Assembly (NCBI GenBank): GCA_011526085.1
Contig: WYBC01000038.1
Span: 310,001-374,000, forward strand
Direction of reading: 5' to 3'
Length of the DNA stretch: 64,000 nt
Origin: Lysobacter sp.
GTDB taxonomy: Bacteria; Pseudomonadota; Gammaproteobacteria; Xanthomonadales; Xanthomonadaceae
Part shown: positions 37,588 through 47,672 of the stretch, in pieces
How positions within the stretch are numbered: the first letter of the stretch is position 1
Layout of the letters: each line of letters opens with the position of its first letter
The notes under the pieces: model-generated
Told to the model about the DNA's origin: nothing
The model's input: the letters and a program-made list of their open reading frames with translations, nothing else
Databases searched by the model: none
Translations under genes and position numbers: made by a program

Positions 37588-37708
37588 ACGATGAATGCGG
37601 CCGGCCCGCGCCGGGCAGGCGCGCCACCTGGCCCATGACCTGTGGCGCATGGCGGCAGGCAGGGCGGGGGCGAAGATGCGGGATTGTCCTCGCAGGAGCA
37701 CCGTCGTC

Positions 37709-40225
37709 ATGCCTCTCCGCCGTCCCGTTCTCCGTCCGCTGCTGTTGCCGGCGCTGCTGGCCCTCGCCCTGGCCGCGCCGCCCGTCGTGTTCGCGCAGCA
37801 ACCGGCCGCCGCGCCGGCGCAGGCCCAGCCGGCCGGCGGTTATCGCGAGCCCGCGGCCGAGCTGAAGGCGATCGTCGATGCGCCGCGCGCGCCGCAGGTC
37901 ATGCTCAGTCCGCGCCGCGATCTGATCGCGCTGCAGCAGGTGCCGCCGCTGCCGTCGATCGCGCTGGTCGCGCAGCCCGAGTTGAAGCTCGCTGGCCTGC
38001 GCCTCAATCCGCGCAGCTATTCGCCCAGCCGCTTCTCCTTCGCCACCGATCTGTGGCTGATGGACGTGGCCACCGGCAAGGAGATGCGCATCGAGGGCCT
38101 GCCGCAGCCGCTGTCGCTGGCCGCGGTGTCGTGGTCGCCGGACCAGAAATACCTCGCGCTGAACCAGCAGGATCCCTACACCGGCGGCAACGCGCTGTGG
38201 CTGGTGGACGTGGGCGCGCGCAAGGCGCGCAGGCTGCTGGATCAGCCCTTGAACACGGTGAGCGGCGGTCTGCGCTGGATGCCCGACAGCAAACATCTGC
38301 TGGTGAACCTGCGCGTGGGCCAGGGCGGCGCGCCGCAGGCCGACATCGTGCCCACCGGGCCGAACGTGCAGGAAGTCCGCGGCGGCGGCGCCGTGCGCCA
38401 GCTGCGCACCTATCCCGACATGCTGCGCAACCCCGGCGACGAGCGCACCTTCGAGCATTACCTGCGCGTGCAGCCCGCGCTGGTCGGCGTGGACGGCAAG
38501 GTCCGCAACGTCGGCAAGCCGGATCTCTACGTGGGCCTGTCGCCGTCGCCGGACGGCAAGCACCTGCTGTCGCAGCGCATCGAGCGTCCGTTCTCGTACG
38601 TGGTGCCGATGAATTTCTTCCCGCGCCGCATCGAAGTGCGCGATCTCGACGGCAAGGTGCTGCATGAGGTCGCGAAGCTGCCGCTGTTCGAGGGTCTGCC
38701 CAGCGGCAACGACGCCACCACCACCGGCGTGCGTTCGATCGGCTGGCGCAGCGATGCCCCCGCCACCCTGGTCTGGGCCGAGGCGCAGGACGGCGGCGAC
38801 CCGTCGAAACAGGTCGAATTCCGCGATCACGTGTTCATGCAGGCGGCGCCGTTCGACCAATCGCCGGTGGTGCTGGCGAAACTCGCGACCCGCTACGCCG
38901 GTGCCGAGTGGGGGCGCGGCGATGTTGCGCTGCTCAGCGAATACTGGTGGAAGACGCGCAAGGTGAAGACCTGGAAGGTCGCGCCCGATGCGCCGGCCAG
39001 CGCGCCGAAACTGGTGTTCGACGGCTCCAGCGAAGACCGCTACAACGATCCGGGCAATCCGGTCACCGAGCGCGACACGAACGGTTTCTCGCGGCTGATG
39101 TTCGGCGCCGACGGCAAGAGCGTGTACCTGGTCGGCGACGGCGCGTCGTCCGAAGGCGACCGTCCGTTCCTCGACCGCTGGAATCTCGACGACCTGAGCA
39201 AACAGCGCCTGTTCCGCTCCGAGGCGCCGACCTATTCGACGGTGGCCGCGGTGCTCGATCGCGATGCGTCGAAGATCCTGATCACCCGCGAATCCCCGAC
39301 CGAGCCGGTGAATTTCTATCGCCTCGATCTCGCCGGCAAGGGCGCGCCGGTCGCGCTGACGGCGTTCGAACACCCGACGCCGCAGCTGAAGGACGTGAAG
39401 AAGGAGCAGATCCGCTACAAGCGCAAGGACGGCGTGGAACTCACCGCGACGCTGTATCTGCCGCCGGGGTTCGAGCCGGGCCGCGACAAGCCGCTGCCGC
39501 TGCTGATGTGGGCCTATCCGGCCGAGTTCAAATCGGCCAGCGCCGCGTCGCAGGTCACCGACTCCCCGTACCGTTTCAACGCCATCAGCTACTGGGGCCC
39601 GCATCCGTTCCTGGCCCGCGGCTACGCGGTGCTCGACGATCCGTCGATGCCGATCATCGGCGAAGGCGACAAGGAACCGAACGACACCTATCTGCCGCAG
39701 CTCATCAGCAGCGCCGAGGCCGCGATCGATGAAGTGGTCCGCCGCGGCGTGGCCGACCGCGACCGCATCGCCATCGGCGGCCATTCCTACGGTGCGTTCA
39801 TGACCGCCAACCTGCTCGCGCACACGCGTCTGTTCAAGGCCGGCATCGCCCGCAGCGGCGCCTACAACCGCACGCTCACGCCGTTCGGATTCCAGGCCGA
39901 GGAGCGCAACTTCTGGGCCGCGCCCGAGACCTACCAGACCATGTCGCCGTTCAACTACGCCGACAGGATCAAGGACGCGCTGCTGATGATCCACGGCGAG
40001 GAAGACAACAACTCCGGCACCTTCCCGATCCAGAGCGAGCGCATGTTCGCCGCGGTCAAGGGCCTCGGCGGCACCTCGCGCCTGGTGATGCTGCCGAAGG
40101 AAAGCCACGGTTACCGCGCCCGCGAATCGATCCTGCACATGCTGGCCGAGACCGACGCATGGCTCGACGAATTCGTGAAGAACGCCAGGCCCGCGGCACC
40201 GGTGGCGACCGCGCCGGCGCGTTGA
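37709..40225 (+). CDS. Secreted S9 (prolyl oligopeptidase-type) peptidase, glutamyl endopeptidase-like
   Basis: An 838-residue protein. The signal peptide ([20 protein letters not shown]) is followed by a Gln/Pro/Ala linker, a seven-bladed propeller (~60-560) and a C-terminal alpha/beta-hydrolase domain. Catalytic residues: Ser in [15 protein letters not shown], Asp in [12 protein letters not shown], His in [12 protein letters not shown]. The [17 protein letters not shown] segment and the overall length resemble plant chloroplast and bacterial glutamyl endopeptidases. It is probably periplasmic or secreted and degrades peptides. AGGAG precedes the ATG (37709). The gene is divergent from ahcY, with the riboswitch between them. 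Confidence 0.88.
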
Positions 40226-40539: not shown

Positions 40540-41136
40540 ATGAAGGACTCTATCAAGGCCCGCATTCTCGTCTCCGTCGGAACCCTCGCCCTCGGTCTGG
40601 CCGCCGCGTTGCCGGCCGCCGCCGAATCTGACTTCCAGACCGGTGCGGGTGCGCTGAACGCGAATGCGCGTCTGGACTTCCGCGTCGTCATTCCGAAATT
40701 CATCCGCTTCCAGGTCGGCAGCGCCGGCGCCACCGTCGATCTGGTCGAATTCGCGGTTCCGGCGGCCAACGTCGGCGACGGCACCGACATCGCCCGCACC
40801 AACGGCGGCGCGGTTCCGGTGCAGTTGCAGAGCAACAACGGCAACGTGTCGCTCACCGCCACCACGCTCGGCCAGTTGAACAACGGCGCCGGCGAGAACA
40901 TCTCGTTCGCCGAGATCCTGTCGACCAGCTCCGATCCGAACCTGAACGTGCCGACCCTGATCGACGGCGGCACCAGCGCCGCGATCACGGTGACGCCGAA
41001 CGTGGGTACGCGCGTGGTCAATCGCACCGCCAACTGGTCGTTCGCGTACAGCAACACCAACTTCGTCGGCGCCGGCAGCTACGGCGGCGTCAACGTGAAC
41101 AACGGTCGCGTCACCTACACCGCCGCGCTGCCGTAA
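40540..41136 (+). CDS. Secreted pilin-like major subunit candidate
   Basis: A 198-residue protein with a clear signal peptide (ARILVSVGTLALGLAAALPA, then AAAESDF). The mature part is small-residue-rich, lacks cysteine and is predicted to be all beta. It begins LDFRVVIPKFIRFQVG and ends NNGRVTYTAALP. The C-terminal strand recurs in the next gene (NARVTYTLATP), as expected for fibre subunits with a conserved terminal beta-strand. GGGGA precedes the ATG. It is the first gene of a cluster with a chaperone-like and an outer-membrane protein, and a stem-loop directly after the stop codon could raise its yield. I do not recognise a named family. Confidence 0.6.
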   Translation: MKDSIKARILVSVGTLALGLAAALPAAAESDFQTGAGALNANARLDFRVVIPKFIRFQVGSAGATVDLVEFAVPAANVGDGTDIARTNGGAVPVQLQSNNGNVSLTATTLGQLNNGAGENISFAEILSTSSDPNLNVPTLIDGGTSAAITVTPNVGTRVVNRTANWSFAYSNTNFVGAGSYGGVNVNNGRVTYTAALP

Positions 41137-41156
41137 GGCGGTGTCGCGACGCCGCC
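41137..41156 (+). other. Intercistronic stem-loop after the first subunit gene
   Basis: GGCGGTGTCGCGACGCCGCC forms a near-perfect hairpin (one mismatch) starting right after the stop codon at 41134-41136, followed by more GC-rich inverted sequence to ~41180. There is no T-tract, so partial termination or 3' end protection is more likely than full termination. This arrangement commonly sets high expression of a major subunit. Confidence 0.5.
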
Positions 41157-41270
41157 GCCGGCACCCGCCGTGCGGCGGCCTGGACTTCGGGGCGCTGCCG
41201 CACGCACGCGGCCGCCCCGGGCAGAATGCGGGAGCCGCATCGTGCCGGCTCCGACTCCGAGAGGTTGCGC

Positions 41271-41939
41271 ATGGCCATCCGTACATCGTCCACGACGCGT
41301 CGCCGCATGGCGCGCCCGACATCGATCGCGATATCGATGACGATCCTGCTGCTGTCGCTGTTCGCGGCCGCACAGGCGTCCGCCTATACCGTCACCATCG
41401 GCACCGGCCCCAAGGCCGCTTACCTGCGCGTCGGCGACGGCAGCATCACCGGCGGCAACTACAACGCGGGCGGTACGCCAGCGGCCAACACCACGGTGAA
41501 TCTCGTCAGCGTCACCGTGCCGGCGAACGTCGTCGGCAACACCGTCAATCAGGCGATGACCGGCACCGGCCGGACCACCAGCGACTGGGATGGTTTCGCG
41601 TTCTGCAATGCCGGGCAGGTCTACATCGGCGCGTTTTTCCGCCTGCCGACCAATCCCAACCAGAGCGCGACCCTGCGCGCCACCGCGCCCACCGCGCTCA
41701 CCAGCGCCGGCGGCGACACCATTCCGATCACCCAGATCACCTGGACCAGCAGCGGCAACGGCGATGCCGGCGCCCAGCCTTTTCCGGCCGGCGCGTTCGC
41801 CGGCGGCACCCAGACGCTGGCCACGCTGCTGCGCAATACCTGGGCCGAAAGCTGCCACACCTTTTCCTACGGCAACGATGCCATCGTGGCCGCAGGCACC
41901 TACAACGCCCGCGTGACCTACACGCTGGCCACGCCATGA
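41271..41939 (+). CDS. Secreted pilin-like second subunit
   Basis: A 222-residue protein with a long signal region (IAISMTILLLSLFAAAQASA). The mature part starts YTVTIGTGPKAAYLRVGDG and contains two cysteines (FAFCNAG and AESCHTF), which could form a disulfide as in fimbrial subunits. It ends TYNARVTYTLATP, sharing the terminal-strand pattern RVTYTxAxP with the first subunit. The stop codon overlaps the next start (ATGA). It could be a minor or tip subunit. The first ~25 residues are basic and unusual, so a start at 41307 (MARPTS) is possible. Confidence 0.6.
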   Translation: MAIRTSSTTRRRMARPTSIAISMTILLLSLFAAAQASAYTVTIGTGPKAAYLRVGDGSITGGNYNAGGTPAANTTVNLVSVTVPANVVGNTVNQAMTGTGRTTSDWDGFAFCNAGQVYIGAFFRLPTNPNQSATLRATAPTALTSAGGDTIPITQITWTSSGNGDAGAQPFPAGAFAGGTQTLATLLRNTWAESCHTFSYGNDAIVAAGTYNARVTYTLATP

Positions 41940-42424
41940 GCGCCGCCCGCAGCCGTCGCGCGATCGCCATCGCGCTGTTCTGCGCCGGCCTGCTGTCGTG
42001 CGCGTCCGCGGTCGCGCAGACCTTCCGCATCGACGACAGCGCCAGCCAGGTGTTGTCGCCGGGCGAAGTGAAGATGCGCTGGGAGTCGCTGGTACCGCGT
42101 CCCGGTCAGCCGTCCACGATCACCGGTCAGGTCGCGGTGCGCGTGGTACTCGACGTCTCGCCCTGGCGCGGCCGTCGTGGCCGCATCTACCACACGCTGC
42201 CGCCCAGCCCGACCGGGCCGGTGACGGTGCGCTGGACCGCGGACGGTCCGCTGTCGTCCGGCGTGCTGCGCGACGGCGAACGCGCGCTGGTCTACACCGG
42301 CCCGATCGACAGCGACCGTCTGGTCGACACCTTTCGCCTCACGCTCCAGGCCGATGGCGACCGCGTGCTGCGGCCGCAGTCGCTGGCCTTCGGATTCGAG
42401 ATCGAACTGGAGCCCGCACGATGA
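41936..42424 (+). CDS. Small secreted beta-rich protein, possible third subunit
   Basis: A 162-residue protein with a signal peptide (IAIALFCAGLLSCASAVAQ) and a beta-rich mature part: TFRIDDSASQVLSPGEVKMR, RVVLDVSPWRGRRGRIYHTL, and a C-terminal strand LAFGFEIELEPAR. No known family was recognised. It overlaps both neighbours by four bases (ATGA at 41936 and 42421), so it is translated as part of the cluster. The Cys in the signal region (LLSCASA) also fits a lipobox-like sequence, so lipoprotein processing is conceivable. Confidence 0.6.
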   Translation: MSAARSRRAIAIALFCAGLLSCASAVAQTFRIDDSASQVLSPGEVKMRWESLVPRPGQPSTITGQVAVRVVLDVSPWRGRRGRIYHTLPPSPTGPVTVRWTADGPLSSGVLRDGERALVYTGPIDSDRLVDTFRLTLQADGDRVLRPQSLAFGFEIELEPAR

Positions 42425-43236
42425 ACACGCCTTCGCGCATGCGCCATGCCACTGCCGCCGTTCTGCTCGCACTGACCACACTCGCCGCGCCGACCGGCGC
42501 GCAGGCGCAGGAATTCTCCGCGGTGATCTCGCCGCCGCGGTTCGAGGATCGCGCCAAACCCGGCGCGACCTACCGCAACGTCATCGAGATCGCCAACGCG
42601 TCGACGAAACCCGGCCGCTTCACCGTCGAGACCGCCGACTGGACGCTGGACGCGCAGGGCGCGCCCGTCTTCACCCAGGCGCTCGCCCCCGGCAGTTGCC
42701 GGCCGTGGGTCGGCATCGAAGCCGCCGCGATCCAGATCGAAGGCAGCGGCAAGCGCCGTTTCCGTTTCGAAGCGAAGGTGCCGGCCGACGCGCATCGCGG
42801 CGAATGCCGCTTCGCGATCATGATCGAAGGCGAACCGCAGATCGCGCGCGGCAACGTGCCGCTGCCGGTCAGCGGCCGCATCGGCGTGATCGTCTATCTC
42901 GCCATCGGCGACGCAGCCCCCGCGCTCACCGTGCTGGAGACCGTCGGCATCGATGCCCAGGGGCAGCGCGTGCCGGCGCTGCGGGTGCGCAACGACGGCG
43001 ACATGCATGCCCGCCTCGAAGGCTATCTCGGCGCGATCGACGCCGCCGGCGAACGCATCGTGCTGGTGCCCGACAACAGCCCGATCCTGCCCGGCGCCAC
43101 CCGCACGATCGCACTGTATCCGCAGGCCGACGATCGCACGGCCGCGGCCCCGACGATCGATTATCCCGTGCGCATCCGCGGCCGTCTCGACGCCGAGCGA
43201 CAGCGGCTGGATATCGACACCGCGCTGGAGCGATGA
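42421..43236 (+). CDS. Periplasmic fimbrial-chaperone-like protein
   Basis: A 271-residue secreted protein with a signal peptide (AAVLLALTTLAAPTGAQA). The first domain (~30-150) has an Ig-like layout: FSAVISPPRFEDRAKPGATY, then RNVIEIANASTKPGRFTVET and FRFEAKVPADAHRGECRFAI. This resembles PapD/CfaA-type chaperone N-domains. A second beta domain (~160-265, LRVRNDGDMHARLEGYLGAI) follows. Two Cys (SCRPW, GECRF) are present. The chaperone role is inferred from fold-like pattern and position between subunit genes and an outer-membrane protein gene. Four-base overlaps occur on both sides. Confidence 0.65.
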   Translation: MNTPSRMRHATAAVLLALTTLAAPTGAQAQEFSAVISPPRFEDRAKPGATYRNVIEIANASTKPGRFTVETADWTLDAQGAPVFTQALAPGSCRPWVGIEAAAIQIEGSGKRRFRFEAKVPADAHRGECRFAIMIEGEPQIARGNVPLPVSGRIGVIVYLAIGDAAPALTVLETVGIDAQGQRVPALRVRNDGDMHARLEGYLGAIDAAGERIVLVPDNSPILPGATRTIALYPQADDRTAAAPTIDYPVRIRGRLDAERQRLDIDTALER

Positions 43237-45302
43237 GTCCGCGCCGTCCCATGGTCCGACGTTCCCGACGCTTCGCCCGGTGCGCGCTGACGCTGGCGCT
43301 CGCGGCGTGCGTCGTGTCGACCCACGCGGGCGCGGCCTCGCCCGCGGACGCCGAGGACGCGTACGACCCGTTCGCCGCGTTCGATCCGCCGCCGCCGTCC
43401 GCGGGCGCGCAGGCCTATCGCGATCGCATCATCGCGCCCGAGTCGCTGGAACCGCTGCCGGACGAAGAAAACGACGAAAACGCCGACGGCCCGCGCCGCG
43501 CGCTGCATGTCGAAGCCATCGCCCACCGCAGCCGTTTCGGCGGCGAGGACACGCTCGAATTCGGCGCCGCGTTCGGCGGCTACTGGGACACCGCGGATCT
43601 CGGCACGCTGTCGCTGGATGCGCTGGCGTTCCGCGTCGACCGCGACCGCGCGGCCTACGGGGGCGACGACGGCGCGCGCTGGCGCGGCACCGCGACGCTG
43701 TGGCAGCGCGGCCTCGATCTGCCCGGCGGCTGGCGCGTCGACAACGGTCTGGGCGTGCTCAACACGCCGATGCCCGCGCTGTTGCGCGACCAGTACCGCT
43801 TCCTGTTGCCCAGCGTGCCGATGCTCGGCGTGTCCAGCGAATGGCGCCAGCGCGCGCGCGGCCTTTCGCTGCACGGCGCCGTGGGTCGCGGCGGCGTCTA
43901 CAGCGGCGCGCGGCTCAGCGGTTTCGAATCCGGCGACGGTGCGGTCGGCACCGTCGGCGCCGAATGGCGCTGGAATGCGCAGTGGAGCGGCGCGGCCACG
44001 CTGCTCGCCACCGACGGTCGCATCGTGCCCGACAGCCAGGGCCTGCCCGCGTTCCAGAACGTCGCCACGCGCGCGCTGTTGATCGGTCAGCGCTGGCAGG
44101 GTGCGCGCGATCAGATCACCCTGAATCTGCAGGCCAGCGACGGCGATGGCGACCTCGGCGGCGCCACGGGCGCATGGCTCGACGGCCGCAGCGCGCGCGG
44201 CGCATACGTGCATCGCTACGGCCTGTTCAATCTCCAGCCCGGGCTCGCCTGGGGCGCGTGGCCCATCGCCAACGACGCCCGCGGCGGTTATTACCGCGTC
44301 GATTACCAGCGCGCACGCTGGACCTGGAACGCGGGCGTCGACCGCATCGGTTCGATCACCGGCGACGGTTTCGACGGCTGGTACGGCAGCGCGCATGCGC
44401 GGTATCAGTCCAGCCCGCGCCTGAGTTACGGCGGCAACCTCTCCGCGCGTCGCGGCCGCGGCGATGCCGATGCCGAGGCGCTGCAGGCCTTCGTCGATCT
44501 GCGCACGCACGCCGGCGACACCCGGCTGCAGTTCGATACGGCGCAGGACGCCGCGGGCGGCGACAGCTGGCAGGTGCTGGCCGATCACGCGCTGCGCCTG
44601 CGCGAAGGTTGGCGGCTGTCGCTGTCGGCCGGTATCGGCGAACTCGCCAACGGCGGCTTCCGCCCCGCGCGCACCACCACGCTCGCGGCCTACGGCGGTT
44701 TCGATATCGGCACCGATCTCACCATCGACGGCACCGCGCGCTGGACCCGCAGCGACGGCGATGCCGGCGCGCGCGGTCTCGATCTGAGCCTCGGCTGGCG
44801 CTGGCGGATCGCGCCGCGCTGGTCGCTGCTCGGCAATCTCACCGAGAACCGCGGGTCGCGGCGTTCGCCGTTCGCGCTCGATCCGCTGACCAACCAGCCG
44901 GTGTTCGAAACCCTGCCGCACGATCGCAGCCTGCAGCTCAGCCTGCGCTACGACCACGCCGCCGGCCGCGCCGCGCAGGTGCTGGGCGGCGCGCCCGACG
45001 CCGCCACCGGCCGCGTCGCCGGCAGCGTGTTCCTCGACGACAACGACGACGGCGTGCGCAACGCCGCCGAGCGTCCTGTCGCCGGCATCACCCTCGTGCT
45101 CGATGGCCGCTACACGCTTCGCACCGACGACCAGGGCCGCTTCGCCTTCGATCGCGTCGCGGTCGGCACGCACACCCTGGAAGTCCTCGCCGACAACCTG
45201 CCGCTGCCATGGTCGCTCGATCCCGCGCAGGCCCGCCGCAGCGTGCAGGTCGAAGTGCGCGATCGCAACGACATCGATATTCCGGCGCAGCGACCGCGTT
45301 GA
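43233..45302 (+). CDS. Outer-membrane beta-barrel protein with C-terminal SdrD-B/CarboxypepD-like domain, usher-like
   Basis: A 689-residue protein. The signal peptide is CALTLALAACVVSTHAGAA. A short N-terminal linker (YDPFAAFDPPPPSAGAQAYR) precedes ~500 residues of alternating beta-strands with many Trp/Tyr/Arg-Gly turns (GAAFGGYWDTADLGTLSLDA, RYQSSPRLSYGGNLSARRG). This pattern fits an outer-membrane barrel. Residues ~590-670 form an Ig-like domain (GSVFLDDNDDGVRNAAERPV, then DQGRFAFDRVAVGTHTLEV), as found at the C-terminus of ushers and adhesins. No PapC/CfaC usher core was recognised. I infer a pore or platform for export of the subunits encoded upstream. The start overlaps the chaperone-like gene by four bases. 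Confidence 0.62.
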   Translation: MSPRRPMVRRSRRFARCALTLALAACVVSTHAGAASPADAEDAYDPFAAFDPPPPSAGAQAYRDRIIAPESLEPLPDEENDENADGPRRALHVEAIAHRSRFGGEDTLEFGAAFGGYWDTADLGTLSLDALAFRVDRDRAAYGGDDGARWRGTATLWQRGLDLPGGWRVDNGLGVLNTPMPALLRDQYRFLLPSVPMLGVSSEWRQRARGLSLHGAVGRGGVYSGARLSGFESGDGAVGTVGAEWRWNAQWSGAATLLATDGRIVPDSQGLPAFQNVATRALLIGQRWQGARDQITLNLQASDGDGDLGGATGAWLDGRSARGAYVHRYGLFNLQPGLAWGAWPIANDARGGYYRVDYQRARWTWNAGVDRIGSITGDGFDGWYGSAHARYQSSPRLSYGGNLSARRGRGDADAEALQAFVDLRTHAGDTRLQFDTAQDAAGGDSWQVLADHALRLREGWRLSLSAGIGELANGGFRPARTTTLAAYGGFDIGTDLTIDGTARWTRSDGDAGARGLDLSLGWRWRIAPRWSLLGNLTENRGSRRSPFALDPLTNQPVFETLPHDRSLQLSLRYDHAAGRAAQVLGGAPDAATGRVAGSVFLDDNDDGVRNAAERPVAGITLVLDGRYTLRTDDQGRFAFDRVAVGTHTLEVLADNLPLPWSLDPAQARRSVQVEVRDRNDIDIPAQRPR

Positions 45303-45553: not shown

Positions 45554-46900
45554 ATGGCCAGGGAATCTCCGCGCGAAGGAGAGATGCCGATCGCGCGCAG
45601 CGGTACGGTCGTCGCACGGCCTGCGGGCAACAGCGCAAGCCTCTACGCGCGCATCATCGCGGCGCAGAACGAAATCGTCCTGCTCGCGCACGACCCGAAC
45701 AAGGTCGTCGACGCGGTCATCCGCCGCGCGCAGGAACTCACCCGTTCCACCGGCGCCGTCGTCGAGATCCTCGATGGCGAAGACTTCGTGTACTGGGCGG
45801 CGAGCGGTACGGCGCATGCGCAGATCGGCCTGCGCATGCACGCGGCGGGCAGCCTGTCGGGACTGTGCGTCGCCCGCAACCGGGTGCTGCGCTGCGACGA
45901 TTCCGAAGAGGATCCGCGCGTGAACCGCGACGCCTGCAGGCGCGTGGGCCTGCGCTCGATGCTGGTCACGCCGCTGTTGTACGAAGGCAGGCCGTTCGCG
46001 GTGCTGAAAGTGTTGTCGCCGTATCCCGGCGCCTACCGCGAGTCCGACATCCAGGTCATGGGCATGATGGCGACGCTGGTCGGCGCCGTGCTCGGGCACG
46101 CGATCGAATATTCGGACCTGCTCAGCGACTATCGCGGGCGGGTCGAGGCCGATCGCATGGTCGAGCGCCACCGCGACGATCTCGTCGGCGGCATCGAATC
46201 CCTGATCCGCAGCCGCCAACTGGACATCGTGTTCCAGCCGATGGTCTCGCTGAGCGACGGCAAGATGTTCGCGCTCGAAGCGCTGTCGCGCTTTCCGGAA
46301 GGCACGCCGTCGCCCGATGTCTGGTTCGCGCAGGCCGCGGAAGTCGGCCTCGGCCTGATGCTGGAACTGGAAGCGGCGCGCCTCGCGCTCGGCCGCCTTG
46401 CCGACGTGCCGCAACCGTACCGGTTGTCGATCAACGTCTCGCCGGAGACGATCGTCACCGGCGCCTTCGAAGCGCTGCTGTCCGCGCACGACATGGCGCG
46501 CGTGATCGTGGAAATCACCGAACACACCACTGTTCCCGATTACGACCGCTTGCGCACCAGCCTGCGCGGAATGCAGTCGCGCGGCGTGCTGGTGGCCATC
46601 GACGACACCGGCGCCGGCTTCGCGTCGCTGCGCCACATCCTCCAGCTGTCGCCCGACATCATCAAGCTCGACATCTCGCTGACCCGCGGCATCGACATCG
46701 ACGCCCGGCGCCAGACCATGGTCGCGGCGATCCAGACCTTCGCCAGCGGCACCAACGCGACCATCGTCGTGGAAGGCGTCGAAAACGAAAGCGAACTCGG
46801 CACGCTCATCGGCCTCGGCATCGAATACGGCCAGGGCTTCCACCTCGGCCGTCCCGGCCCGCTGGACGCGGTGCTTGGCGGCGTAGGCGTCACATGCTGA
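45554..46900 (+). CDS. GAF-EAL cyclic-di-GMP phosphodiesterase
   Basis: A 448-residue cytoplasmic protein. A GAF domain (~45-180; LVTPLLYEGRPFAVLKVLSP) is followed by a coiled-coil linker and an EAL domain (~210-440). Catalytic motifs are intact: FALEALSRF (EAL), SINVSPE, VEITEHT, IDDTGAGFASL (DD pair), IKLDISL, VEGVENESEL and YGQGFHLGRP. It should hydrolyse c-di-GMP to pGpG under control of a GAF ligand. Start 45554 has GGGTGGG six bases upstream. A TTGACG-17-TATCAC promoter precedes it. Together with the cyclase at 34756 it gives opposing c-di-GMP activities in the window. Confidence 0.93.
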   Translation: MARESPREGEMPIARSGTVVARPAGNSASLYARIIAAQNEIVLLAHDPNKVVDAVIRRAQELTRSTGAVVEILDGEDFVYWAASGTAHAQIGLRMHAAGSLSGLCVARNRVLRCDDSEEDPRVNRDACRRVGLRSMLVTPLLYEGRPFAVLKVLSPYPGAYRESDIQVMGMMATLVGAVLGHAIEYSDLLSDYRGRVEADRMVERHRDDLVGGIESLIRSRQLDIVFQPMVSLSDGKMFALEALSRFPEGTPSPDVWFAQAAEVGLGLMLELEAARLALGRLADVPQPYRLSINVSPETIVTGAFEALLSAHDMARVIVEITEHTTVPDYDRLRTSLRGMQSRGVLVAIDDTGAGFASLRHILQLSPDIIKLDISLTRGIDIDARRQTMVAAIQTFASGTNATIVVEGVENESELGTLIGLGIEYGQGFHLGRPGPLDAVLGGVGVTC

Positions 46901-46964
46901 GACGCCAATGCCGCGCCCGCTTGGCAGGTGGGCCGGAACCGCTGGTGTGCCCTCGCCGGTTTTT

Positions 46965-46990
46965 GTAGGAGCGCCGGCAGGCGCGACGGG
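46965..46990 (+). repeat. GTAG-type REP element
   Basis: GTAGGAGCGCCGGCAGGCGC followed by GACGGG: a GTAG head, then a GCGCC-GGCA-GGCGC stem. It is a single unit related to the inverted pair at 32938-33007. Confidence 0.7.
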
Positions 46991-47052
46991 AGGCGCGATG
47001 CGTTCGCCGAAGCACACGCTTCCGGAGCACGGAACTGGTCAGGGAAGAGGGC

Positions 47053-47092
47053 TTGCACCAAGCCCCGGCGTTGAATATGATATGCATCATAT
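47053..47092 (+). promoter_or_regulatory. tetR promoter with ATATGA-N6-TCATAT operator, possible leaderless start
   Basis: TTGCAC (47053-47058), 17-base spacer, TATGAT (47076-47081). The operator ATATGATATGCATCATAT (47075-47092) covers the -10 box and the predicted start point. Transcription from this promoter would begin at or next to the ATG at 47091, suggesting a leaderless mRNA. Confidence 0.65.
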
Positions 47093-47672
47093 GAAACGAG
47101 GCGGCACACGATCCAAAGACGCGACGCACGACCGCATCGTCGACGCGGCCGCGCGCGCCATTCGGCGCAGCGGCTACAACGGCGCGGGCGTCGCCGAGAT
47201 CATGAGGGACGCCGGCCTGACCCACGGCGGCTTCTATGCCCATTTCGGCTCGCGCGAGGCGATGCTTGCCGAGGCGGCCGACCGTGCAGGCGGCGAGAGC
47301 GTGGCGATGATGCAGCAGATCGCCGCCAGCTTGCCGCCGCATCAGGCCCTTGCGGCCATGATGCAGGCGTATCTGTCGGATGCGCACGTCGAAGCGATAG
47401 AAACCGGCTGCGCAACGGCCGCGCTCTGTTCCGAGATGCCTCGCCAGGCGCCGGAGATCAGACGCATTGCCACCCGGCGCATCAAGGAAATGATCGACCT
47501 CGTTTCCCGGCAATCGCCCGACTGGGGGCAGCCCGAGGCGCACGAGCGCGCGCTGGTCACCATCGCGACGATGGTCGGCACCTTGGCGCTGGCGCGTGCC
47601 GTCGATGATTCCCGACTTTCCCGGGCGCTGCGTGAAGCGGCGTTGAAACACCTGTCCCCCTCTGATTCCTGA
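47091..47672 (+). CDS. TetR-family regulator of the SDR-MDR operon
   Basis: A 193-residue TetR protein. HTH: GAGVAEIMRDAGLTHGGFYA, then HFGSREAMLAEA (residues ~28-58). The C-terminal ligand domain contains GCATAALCSEMPRQAP, a pattern seen in TetR proteins controlling SDR and reductase operons. It lies directly upstream of, and in the same direction as, the SDR gene. The same palindrome occurs at both promoters, so it most likely represses itself and the SDR-MDR pair until a reactive substrate binds. No Shine-Dalgarno is visible. A terminator overlaps its stop codon. Confidence 0.88.
   Translation: MKRGGTRSKDATHDRIVDAAARAIRRSGYNGAGVAEIMRDAGLTHGGFYAHFGSREAMLAEAADRAGGESVAMMQQIAASLPPHQALAAMMQAYLSDAHVEAIETGCATAALCSEMPRQAPEIRRIATRRIKEMIDLVSRQSPDWGQPEAHERALVTIATMVGTLALARAVDDSRLSRALREAALKHLSPSDS

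What the first reader, a model, noticed from the sequence alone, without database searches (positions are those of the whole stretch)
40540..45302. Five-gene coupled cluster that looks like a divergent surface-fibre assembly system
Two secreted beta-rich subunits share the C-terminal strand RVTYTxAxP. They are followed by a small secreted beta protein, a two-domain Ig-like chaperone candidate and a 689-residue outer-membrane barrel with a C-terminal Ig-like domain. The last four genes overlap by ATGA (41936, 42421, 43233), so their products are made together. Known chaperone-usher systems have a recognisable PapC or CfaC usher; I do not see one, and the barrel here is shorter. I infer a chaperone/secretin-like pathway that polymerises the two subunits.
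Basis: partly seen in the sequence, partly recalled or inferred. Interest (0 to 1): 0.75.

Follow-up and report, generated by a model that had tools for sequence, protein, structure and literature searches.

The report
Stripped-down chaperone–usher fibre cluster
Five co-translated genes appear to encode a much reduced relative of the machinery that builds hair-like fibres on bacterial surfaces, with an outer-membrane pore that lacks the gate and the docking domain of known pores of that kind.

Summary
In detail: five genes for apparently secreted proteins, three exact ATGA overlaps, two paralogous subunits ending RVTYTxAxP. The order A-B-small-chaperone-barrel is kept in 28 of 28 family loci examined and in 71 of 80 loci from Lysobacter, Arenimonas, Hydrogenophaga, Variovorax and others (the sets overlap); in other Gammaproteobacteria the barrel gene mostly lies tail to tail on the other strand. 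The fourth protein is a PapD-superfamily two-domain chaperone (profile match 98%, both domains; both presumed anchor arginines invariant; best fold hits WxLIP, YadV, CfaA, CsuC). The fifth is modelled as a 26-strand outer-membrane barrel whose top fold hits are FimD and PapC, though with low TM-scores. Its C-terminal domain is related to usher CTD1, most clearly through a bridging locus with a larger, plugged usher, and also to SdrD_B repeats. It has no usher NTD, plug or CTD2, and 0 of 72 relatives match Pfam Usher (E up to 0.2). The barrel itself is not shown to be usher-derived by sequence. SubA begins with an alternating 13-residue strand, as a donor strand should; subB lacks most of it. 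Best reading: a minimal, apparently undescribed chaperone–usher-type pathway. 'Secretin-like' is not supported. No fibre has been seen.

The parts
40540..41136 (+). subA (P0001): secreted beta-rich subunit, proposed main fibre subunit
   Evidence: 85-89% identical to its counterparts in L104, L105 and L106
40654..40692 (+). subA residues 39-51: proposed donor strand LNANARLDFRVVI, directly before P52
   Evidence: hydrophobic fraction 0.70-1.00 at odd positions 39-51 and 0.00-0.13 at 40-48 (0.54 at 50) in 68 sequences; residues 38-39 are gaps in 17-18 of them
41107..41133 (+). subA C-terminal strand RVTYTAALP
41271..41939 (+). subB (P0002): paralogue of subA without most of the N-terminal strand, with an insertion and two invariant cysteines; proposed tip subunit
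41910..41936 (+). subB C-terminal strand RVTYTLATP
41936..42424 (+). small secreted protein P0003, no relative of known function found; role open (minor subunit, anchor or terminator)
42421..43236 (+). P0004: two-domain PapD-superfamily periplasmic chaperone
   Evidence: AlphaFold2 pLDDT 92.9; Foldseek; profile-profile with 26 PapD_N chaperones 98.0%, P 2e-13
42538..42540 (+). P0004 Arg40, invariant; aligns to a column of PapD-type chaperones whose commonest residue is Arg
   Evidence: 74 of 74; R in 9 of 26 PapD-type chaperones; its equation with PapD R8 is recalled
42877..42879 (+). P0004 Arg153, invariant, at the start of the proposed G1 donor strand RIGVIVYLAI
   Evidence: 74 of 74; R or K in 15 of 26 PapD-type chaperones; its equation with PapD K112 is recalled
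43233..45302 (+). P0005: outer-membrane barrel platform, reduced usher-like protein
43416..43448 (+). P0005 residues 62-72: conserved peptide YRDRIIAPESL in a low-confidence region before the barrel
   Evidence: Y62 69 of 72, D64 72 of 72, R65 57 of 72, I67 64 of 72; block pLDDT 54-55 over residues 61-80
43497..44963 (+). P0005 residues 89-577: beta-barrel, 26 long strands in the model
   Evidence: DSSP on the AlphaFold2 model
45006..45290 (+). P0005 residues 592-686: C-terminal domain with a DxNxDG...E loop, related to SdrD_B repeats and to usher CTD1

Best explanation
A minimal chaperone–usher-type pathway. All five proteins go to the periplasm by Sec (inferred). P0004 caps subA and subB by lending them a strand (donor-strand complementation; inferred from homology, the invariant arginines and the hydrophobic RIGVIVYLAI strand). 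P0005 is the outer-membrane platform: its even number of strands puts both ends in the periplasm, so the CTD1-like domain and the Y-x-D-R peptide face the incoming chaperone–subunit complexes (inferred). SubB, lacking most of the alternating N-terminal strand, is exported first as the tip; subA subunits then join by donor-strand exchange. P0003 is an accessory part (minor subunit, terminator or anchor). Supported by computation here: gene set, overlapping genes, PapD-superfamily membership of P0004, usher-CTD1-related C-terminal domain of P0005, subA/subB paralogy, strand pattern. Inferred: export, exchange, order of assembly, and that a fibre exists.
For: P0004 family against 26 PapD_N chaperones: hhalign 98.0%, P 2e-13, 215 columns over both domains; controls LptD 1.6%, subB 5.0%, subA 12.9%, small 25.4% (short stretches). 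Foldseek: WxLIP E 7.6e-10, then YadV 2.1e-9, CfaA 7.3e-9, CsuC 1.0e-8. R40 and R153 invariant in 74 of 74, aligned to columns where Arg is commonest. P0005: the top 14 Foldseek hits are FimD or PapC chains, E 4e-13 to 2e-8; the whole family profile against ushers 92.1%, TonB receptors 50.3%, LptD 22.0%. C-terminal domain against bridge-usher CTD1 97.1%, P 6e-11; bridge against usher CTD1 95.3%; direct 88.5%. The bridge locus L337 carries, on one strand, two secreted subunits, a chaperone matching both families (97.6% and 98.3%), a small protein and an 872-aa usher-like protein with a plug-region match and two C-terminal domains. SubA strand alternation in 68 sequences. Gene order and overlaps.
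Against: The barrel alone is no closer to ushers than to TonB receptors by profile (27.3% against 37.5%). The segment before the plug does not align (0.3%). Foldseek TM-scores for the top 14 are only 0.28-0.40 with rmsd 14-25 A. No NTD, plug or CTD2. The subunits match no known pilin: SCPU 2.0% and 3.8%, no pilin family in Pfam scans of 68 subA and 48 subB sequences. The C-terminal domain matches SdrD_B-type repeats even better than usher CTD1 (98.8%; those repeats were picked by their likeness to it). P0004 relatives also have sub-threshold hits to other Ig-like families, most often NPCBM_assoc (20 of 74, best E 0.0006). P0003 is unexplained. No complex was modelled and no fibre has been seen.
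Confidence: 0.7

Rival explanations
1. A Gram-negative counterpart of the WxL/WxLIP system: P0004 is a stabilising partner that holds WxL-like subA and subB at the surface rather than a transient chaperone, and P0005 exports or anchors them without polymerisation.
For: Foldseek rank 1 and 2 for P0004 are WxLIP; WxLIP_PGBD matches 18 of 74 P0004 relatives below cut-off, best E 0.012; EfmWxLIP1 is the best PDB profile hit, E 0.21, not significant; one WxLIP plus two WxL proteins is the most common WxL cluster (PMC10599100, part 1 of the results).
Against: No WxL family hit among 68 subA and 48 subB sequences and no dual W-x-L motif in P0001 or P0002; PapD-type chaperones match P0004 strongly by profile and fit its fold with higher TM (0.47 against 0.40); no C-terminal membrane helix in the model. 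No profile-profile test against a WxLIP or WxL alignment was made.
Confidence: 0.13
2. P0005 is an outer-membrane export channel or receptor unrelated to ushers; it secretes or anchors single subunits (adhesins or matrix proteins), and no polymer is made.
For: The barrel sequence is no nearer to ushers than to TonB receptors; MtrB is a comparable structural match (TM 0.40/0.42); the C-terminal domain also belongs to the broad SdrD_B/CarboxypepD_reg class (72 of 72 relatives).
Against: Conserved linkage to a PapD-type chaperone and paired subunits; C-terminal domain tied to usher CTD1 through L337; alternating subA strand.
Confidence: 0.12
3. An ordinary chaperone–usher operon whose usher merely escapes the Pfam cut-off.
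For: Chaperone homology and usher fold hits.
Against: No NTD, plug or CTD2 in the model; 0 of 72 relatives match PF00577 at E up to 0.2. The same genome holds a separate locus with Usher, PapD_N and SCPU hits.
Confidence: 0.05

Closest known systems
Archaic/classical chaperone–usher pathway (FimD, PapC, CsuC, YadV)
   Same: PapD-superfamily chaperone with both arginines; outer-membrane barrel with a CTD1-related domain; paralogous subunits, one with an alternating N-terminal strand; compact operon
   Different: Platform has 26 modelled strands instead of 24 and no NTD, plug or CTD2; subunits match no known pilin family in our searches; an extra small protein
Class 5 (alternative) CFA/I fimbriae
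   Same: Two-subunit logic: one tip subunit and one main subunit (PMC7531860, passages); CfaA is among the best fold matches
   Different: CfaC is treated there as an usher with a plug domain; our subunits give no pilin hit in Pfam
WxL/WxLIP clusters of Gram-positive bacteria
   Same: Two-domain Ig partner protein plus two related beta-rich surface proteins; best Foldseek hit for P0004
   Different: No WxL family hit, no transmembrane anchor on P0004, an outer-membrane barrel present
   Same: Two subunits, chaperone, small protein and outer-membrane platform on one strand; chaperone matches both families
   Different: Its 872-aa platform aligns to ushers over 612 columns and has two C-terminal domains; its subunits and small protein do not align to ours

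Membership tests
Chaperone–usher pathway: chaperone | PapD-superfamily two-domain fold | tested here: met
   AlphaFold2 pLDDT 92.9, Foldseek, hhalign 98.0% over both domains
Chaperone–usher pathway: chaperone | Passes the Pfam PapD_N cut-off | tested here: not met
   2 of 74 relatives match PapD_N at E up to 1, best E 0.015; P0004 itself does not
Chaperone–usher pathway: chaperone | Conserved basic pair that anchors the subunit C-terminus | tested here: met
   R40 and R153 74 of 74, aligned to columns with R in 9 of 26 and R/K in 15 of 26; the functional role is recalled
Chaperone–usher pathway: usher | Large outer-membrane barrel (24 strands in known ushers, PMC8410936 passages) | tested here: inconclusive
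   26 strands in the model; best folds FimD/PapC but TM 0.28-0.40
Chaperone–usher pathway: usher | Periplasmic N-terminal recruiting domain | tested here: not met
   residues 1-88 contain no folded domain in the model; only a short conserved peptide
Chaperone–usher pathway: usher | Plug domain inside the barrel | tested here: not met
   longest stretch between modelled barrel strands is 23 residues (541-563)
Chaperone–usher pathway: usher | Two C-terminal domains | tested here: not met
   one only, CTD1-related
Chaperone–usher pathway: usher | Pfam PF00577 match | tested here: not met
   0 of 72 relatives at E up to 0.2; at E up to 1 three families were not shown
Chaperone–usher pathway: subunits | N-terminal donor strand with alternating hydrophobic residues | tested here: met
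   subA residues 39-51 in 68 sequences; subB only in part
Chaperone–usher pathway: subunits | Donor-strand exchange into a fibre | not testable with these tools
   no complex prediction or microscopy available
WxL/WxLIP | Dual W-x-L motif / Pfam WxL domain in the subunits | tested here: not met
   no WxL family among the Pfam hits of 68 subA and 48 subB sequences; motif absent from P0001 and P0002 by eye
WxL/WxLIP | DUF916 (WxLIP_PGBD) in the partner protein | tested here: inconclusive
   18 of 74 sub-threshold, best E 0.012; top Foldseek hits
Secretin | Secretin domain | tested here: not met
   no secretin among the 24 Pfam families at E up to 0.2 for 72 relatives nor among the 50 Foldseek hits shown

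The most novel reading that the evidence does not exclude
A distinct branch of fibre assembly in which a 26-strand platform without NTD, plug or CTD2 recruits, gates and polymerises donor-strand subunits using only its CTD1-like domain and a short Y-x-D-R peptide, and whose chaperone stands between PapD chaperones and Gram-positive WxLIP, hinting that both surface systems share an ancestor.
Probability: 0.35. Interest if true: 0.78.

Novelty: new variant of a known kind. Interest (0 to 1): 0.6.

Why it matters
In known ushers the NTD recruits chaperone–subunit complexes and the plug closes the pore (PMC8410936, passages). A natural platform that keeps only the barrel and one C-terminal domain would show which parts are essential and would make the gating and recruitment questions directly testable. 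It would also mean that surveys based on Pfam Usher miss a whole group: 43 of 297 family genomes carry the chaperone with E below 1e-90. The chaperone's fold match to WxLIP makes a link between Gram-negative pili and Gram-positive WxL systems testable.

Tried and rejected
Secretin-like pathway: no support.

Homology of the P0005 barrel to usher barrels by sequence: not shown. Barrel-only profile 27.3% against ushers, 37.5% against TonB receptors, 10.6% against LptD. A resemblance I saw by eye between P0005 residues 187-199 and the stretch before the usher plug gave 0.3%, so I dropped it.

Known pilin families for the subunits: SCPU 2.0% (subA) and 3.8% (subB); Pfam scans of 68 subA and 48 subB sequences gave no pilin family; PDB profile searches gave only a pectate lyase at E 0.04 for subA and nothing for subB. 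The 'small' protein has only chance-level hits.

A link to the GAF-EAL gene downstream or the S9 peptidase upstream: tblastn relatives (E up to 1e-10) of the EAL protein in 5 of 122 loci, of the S9 peptidase in 0 (some genomes occur twice among the 122), so I do not count them as parts.

Counting mature N-terminal lengths with a simple A-x-A rule failed because subA has an internal A-x-A; I replaced it by column statistics.

Rows left out before alignment: A7 used 71 of 73 listed barrels (L112 and L152 dropped for unusual length), A8 73 of 78 chaperones, A9 67 of 82 subA entries, A10 56 of 76, A11 47 of 75, each plus the window protein (lists, already thinned for near-identical sequences; alignments). 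Reference sets: usher alignment of 13 rows that are only 9 distinct ushers, 26 PapD-type chaperones, 36 SCPU domains, 29 LptD and 19 TonB receptors. Of 16 class matches outside the window's genome 15 were fetched; G556 was not. Of 43 strong family genomes 28 loci were examined.
Full report
The observation. SubA (198 aa) and subB (222 aa) end RVTYTAALP and RVTYTLATP. A 162-aa small protein, a 271-aa protein and a 689-aa protein follow. None passes a Pfam or NCBIfam cut-off and PHROGs gave nothing below E 0.04; only the C-terminus of the 689-aa protein has notable sub-threshold hits, to CarboxypepD_reg and SdrD_B.

Conservation. The window lies in a 4.2-Mb genome of 48 contigs. Of 59 genomes searched, the window's own included, 13 had a match to P0005, 8 of them over most of its length and 5 only in its C-terminal domain. 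All eight carry the five genes in order with a start codon at the -4 position of the three junctions. The chaperone profile A1 matched 48 of 297 family genomes, 43 with E below 1e-90 and five only weakly, and 16 of 369 class genomes, the window's own included. In 28 of 28 family loci examined (8 plus 20) all five genes lie in the same order on one strand. Of 15 class loci fetched, 13 have the barrel: once downstream on the same strand, four times upstream on the same strand, eight times on the opposite strand, tail to tail with the chaperone gene; the small gene was found in 11 of those 13. The scan of GTDB contigs returned 197 stretches of which 176 encode relatives; the best 80 were kept. 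Of these, 71 of 80 have A-B-small-chaperone-barrel in order on one strand, 6 start at a contig end and lack subA or subA and subB, 2 have the barrel on the other strand and 1 has no barrel within 5.9 kb. They include Lysobacter, Pseudoxanthomonas, Arenimonas, Vulcaniibacterium, Hydrogenophaga, Variovorax, Polaromonas and Ideonella. Some of the same genomes are in the family set. Overlapping start and stop codons are frequent: 71 of 78, 57 of 80 and 64 of 77.

The chaperone. AlphaFold2 with 74 sequences gave pLDDT 92.9 and an all-beta mature protein that I read as two sandwich domains. Foldseek ranks WxLIP of Enterococcus faecium first (E 7.6e-10, TM 0.40), then YadV, CfaA and CsuC (E 2e-9 to 1e-8, TM 0.45-0.47). 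By profile the family matches 26 PapD_N chaperones at 98.0%, P 2e-13, over 215 columns covering both domains; controls gave 1.6% (LptD), 5.0% (subB), 12.9% (subA) and 25.4% (small), each over short stretches. R40 and R153 are invariant in 74 of 74 and align to columns where PapD-type chaperones have R in 9 of 26 and R or K in 15 of 26; that these are the PapD pair R8/K112 is recalled. R153 begins the strand RIGVIVYLAI, the expected position of the donor strand. No Pfam cut-off is passed by P0004; among 74 relatives the sub-threshold hits are NPCBM_assoc (20), WxLIP_PGBD (18), fn3_5 (11), PapD_N (2) and others.

The barrel. AlphaFold2 with 72 sequences gave pLDDT 86.6: a low-confidence start (1-88), 26 long strands (89-577) and one beta domain (592-686). 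The even number puts both ends in the periplasm (inference). Foldseek ranks 1-14 are all FimD or PapC (E 4e-13 to 2e-8, TM 0.28-0.40, rmsd 14-25 A), followed by MtrB and TonB receptors. By sequence 0 of 72 relatives match Pfam Usher at E up to 0.2. The whole family profile scores 92.1% against ushers, 50.3% against TonB receptors and 22.0% against LptD, but the barrel alone is no nearer to ushers (27.3%) than to TonB receptors (37.5%), so the difference comes from the C-terminal domain. That domain matches SdrD_B-type repeats of giant proteins (98.8%; chosen by their likeness to it), bridge-usher CTD1 (97.1%, P 6e-11) and usher CTD1 (88.5%, 79 columns, through the LP motif to the end). The SdrD_B-type repeats match usher CTD1 over 29 columns only (64.8%) and bridge-usher CTD1 at 63.1%. 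Its D602, N604 and E613 are kept in 72, 70 and 72 of 72, and L658, P659 and W660 in 72, 72 and 70 of 72. Y62 and D64 (69 and 72 of 72) mark a conserved peptide just before the barrel.

The bridge. The chaperone matches P0004 relatives (97.6%) and PapD chaperones (98.3%). The 872-aa protein aligns to ushers over 612 columns (94.1%), including the plug region, and its CTD1 is hit by the P0005 C-terminal profile (c-Evalue 4e-8); a second C-terminal domain passes the CarboxypepD_reg cut-off, while Pfam Usher does not appear at E up to 0.01. An N-terminal domain is my reading by eye. The subunits and small protein do not align to ours. A second such locus is L338 (86.0% to ushers over 164 columns; 80.3% to P0005 relatives, in the C-terminal domain). 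L083 has a P0004-type chaperone (98.3%) beside an 881-aa protein that aligns only weakly to the usher plug region (25.8%). These loci tie the P0004 kind of chaperone to usher-type platforms and suggest that P0005 is a reduced form; whether by domain loss is not shown.

The subunits. SubA and subB are paralogues (99.8%, P 4e-29). In 68 subA sequences, residues 39-51 before the conserved P52 alternate: hydrophobic fractions 0.70, 0.94, 0.97, 1.00, 1.00, 1.00, 1.00 at 39, 41, 43, 45, 47, 49, 51 and 0.03, 0.13, 0.01, 0.00, 0.03, 0.54 between them. SubB starts, by its likely cleavage site, about 15 residues further in and has only three alternating positions (39, 41, 43), an insertion and invariant C112 and C195. 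This fits a polymerising subunit and a tip subunit, as in two-subunit class 5 fimbriae (PMC7531860, passages). They match no known pilin family.

Wider reach. A plasmid of Deinococcus sp. NW-56 carries a chaperone relative (98.5% to A8, 96.0% to PapD) next to a 292-aa protein with a TLTYTLTS stretch near its end, a 190-aa protein whose gene overlaps by 4 bases, and a 1013-aa protein with an SdrD_B domain whose C-terminal part matches P0005 (92.7%); the 292-aa and 190-aa proteins do not align to our subunits or small protein. That the middle of the 1013-aa protein is a barrel is my reading. Across the phylum, A8 matched 9 of 378 genomes, the window's own included.

What is known. Ushers have five domains: 24-strand barrel, plug, NTD, CTD1, CTD2 (PMC8410936, passages). 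WxLIP is described as two Ig-like domains that bind WxL, in clusters of Gram-positive bacteria with most often two WxL proteins (PMC10599100, outline and part 1 of the results). I found no paper describing this cluster in searches; apart from the three papers named I saw listings only. The library lacks most subscription papers and bioRxiv.

Verdict. It works, most likely, like a chaperone–usher pathway; strict membership fails on the platform (no NTD, plug, CTD2), so I file it as a new variant.

Noticed in passing
G000:C31:49918-54438 (loci L184, L259): The same genome also has a classical-looking chaperone–usher locus: one Pfam Usher, one PapD_N and three SCPU hits, so the two kinds coexist.
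   Followed up: partly
window 45554-46900: A GAF-EAL protein (possible c-di-GMP phosphodiesterase) lies directly downstream, followed by a TetR-type regulator at 46908-47672. The EAL neighbour is not conserved (relatives in 5 of 122 loci).
   Followed up: yes
window 37595-40225: An S9 prolyl-oligopeptidase-type peptidase lies upstream; no relative next to the cluster elsewhere (0 of 122).
   Followed up: yes
L337:2294-7906 and L338: Bridge loci: usher-type proteins without a Pfam Usher hit at E up to 0.01, beside chaperones matching both P0004 and PapD families.
   Followed up: partly
L197:6902-12475 (NZ_CP026517.1, Deinococcus sp. NW-56 plasmid): A similar-looking set in Deinococcus: secreted protein, chaperone, small protein, large protein with SdrD_B domain.
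   Followed up: partly
L078:3837-5948 and L079:8895-11039: Barrel relatives with an N-terminal stretch that looks to me like a LysM/FimV-type domain (recalled motif, not tested).
   Followed up: no
L152, L169, L174, L176, L180: An extra subA-type gene after the barrel in five loci, all five from Hydrogenophaga by record title; 14 other loci have two A-type genes before B.
   Followed up: no
L333-L336 (genomes G985, G971, G885, G748): P0004-type chaperone relatives in four more distant genomes of the phylum, with no barrel or subunit relative detected at E up to 0.01 within about 6 kb.
   Followed up: no
genus g1: The cluster is patchy even within the genus: 6 of 11 genomes have it, 5 do not, though three of those five are under 90% complete.
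   Followed up: no
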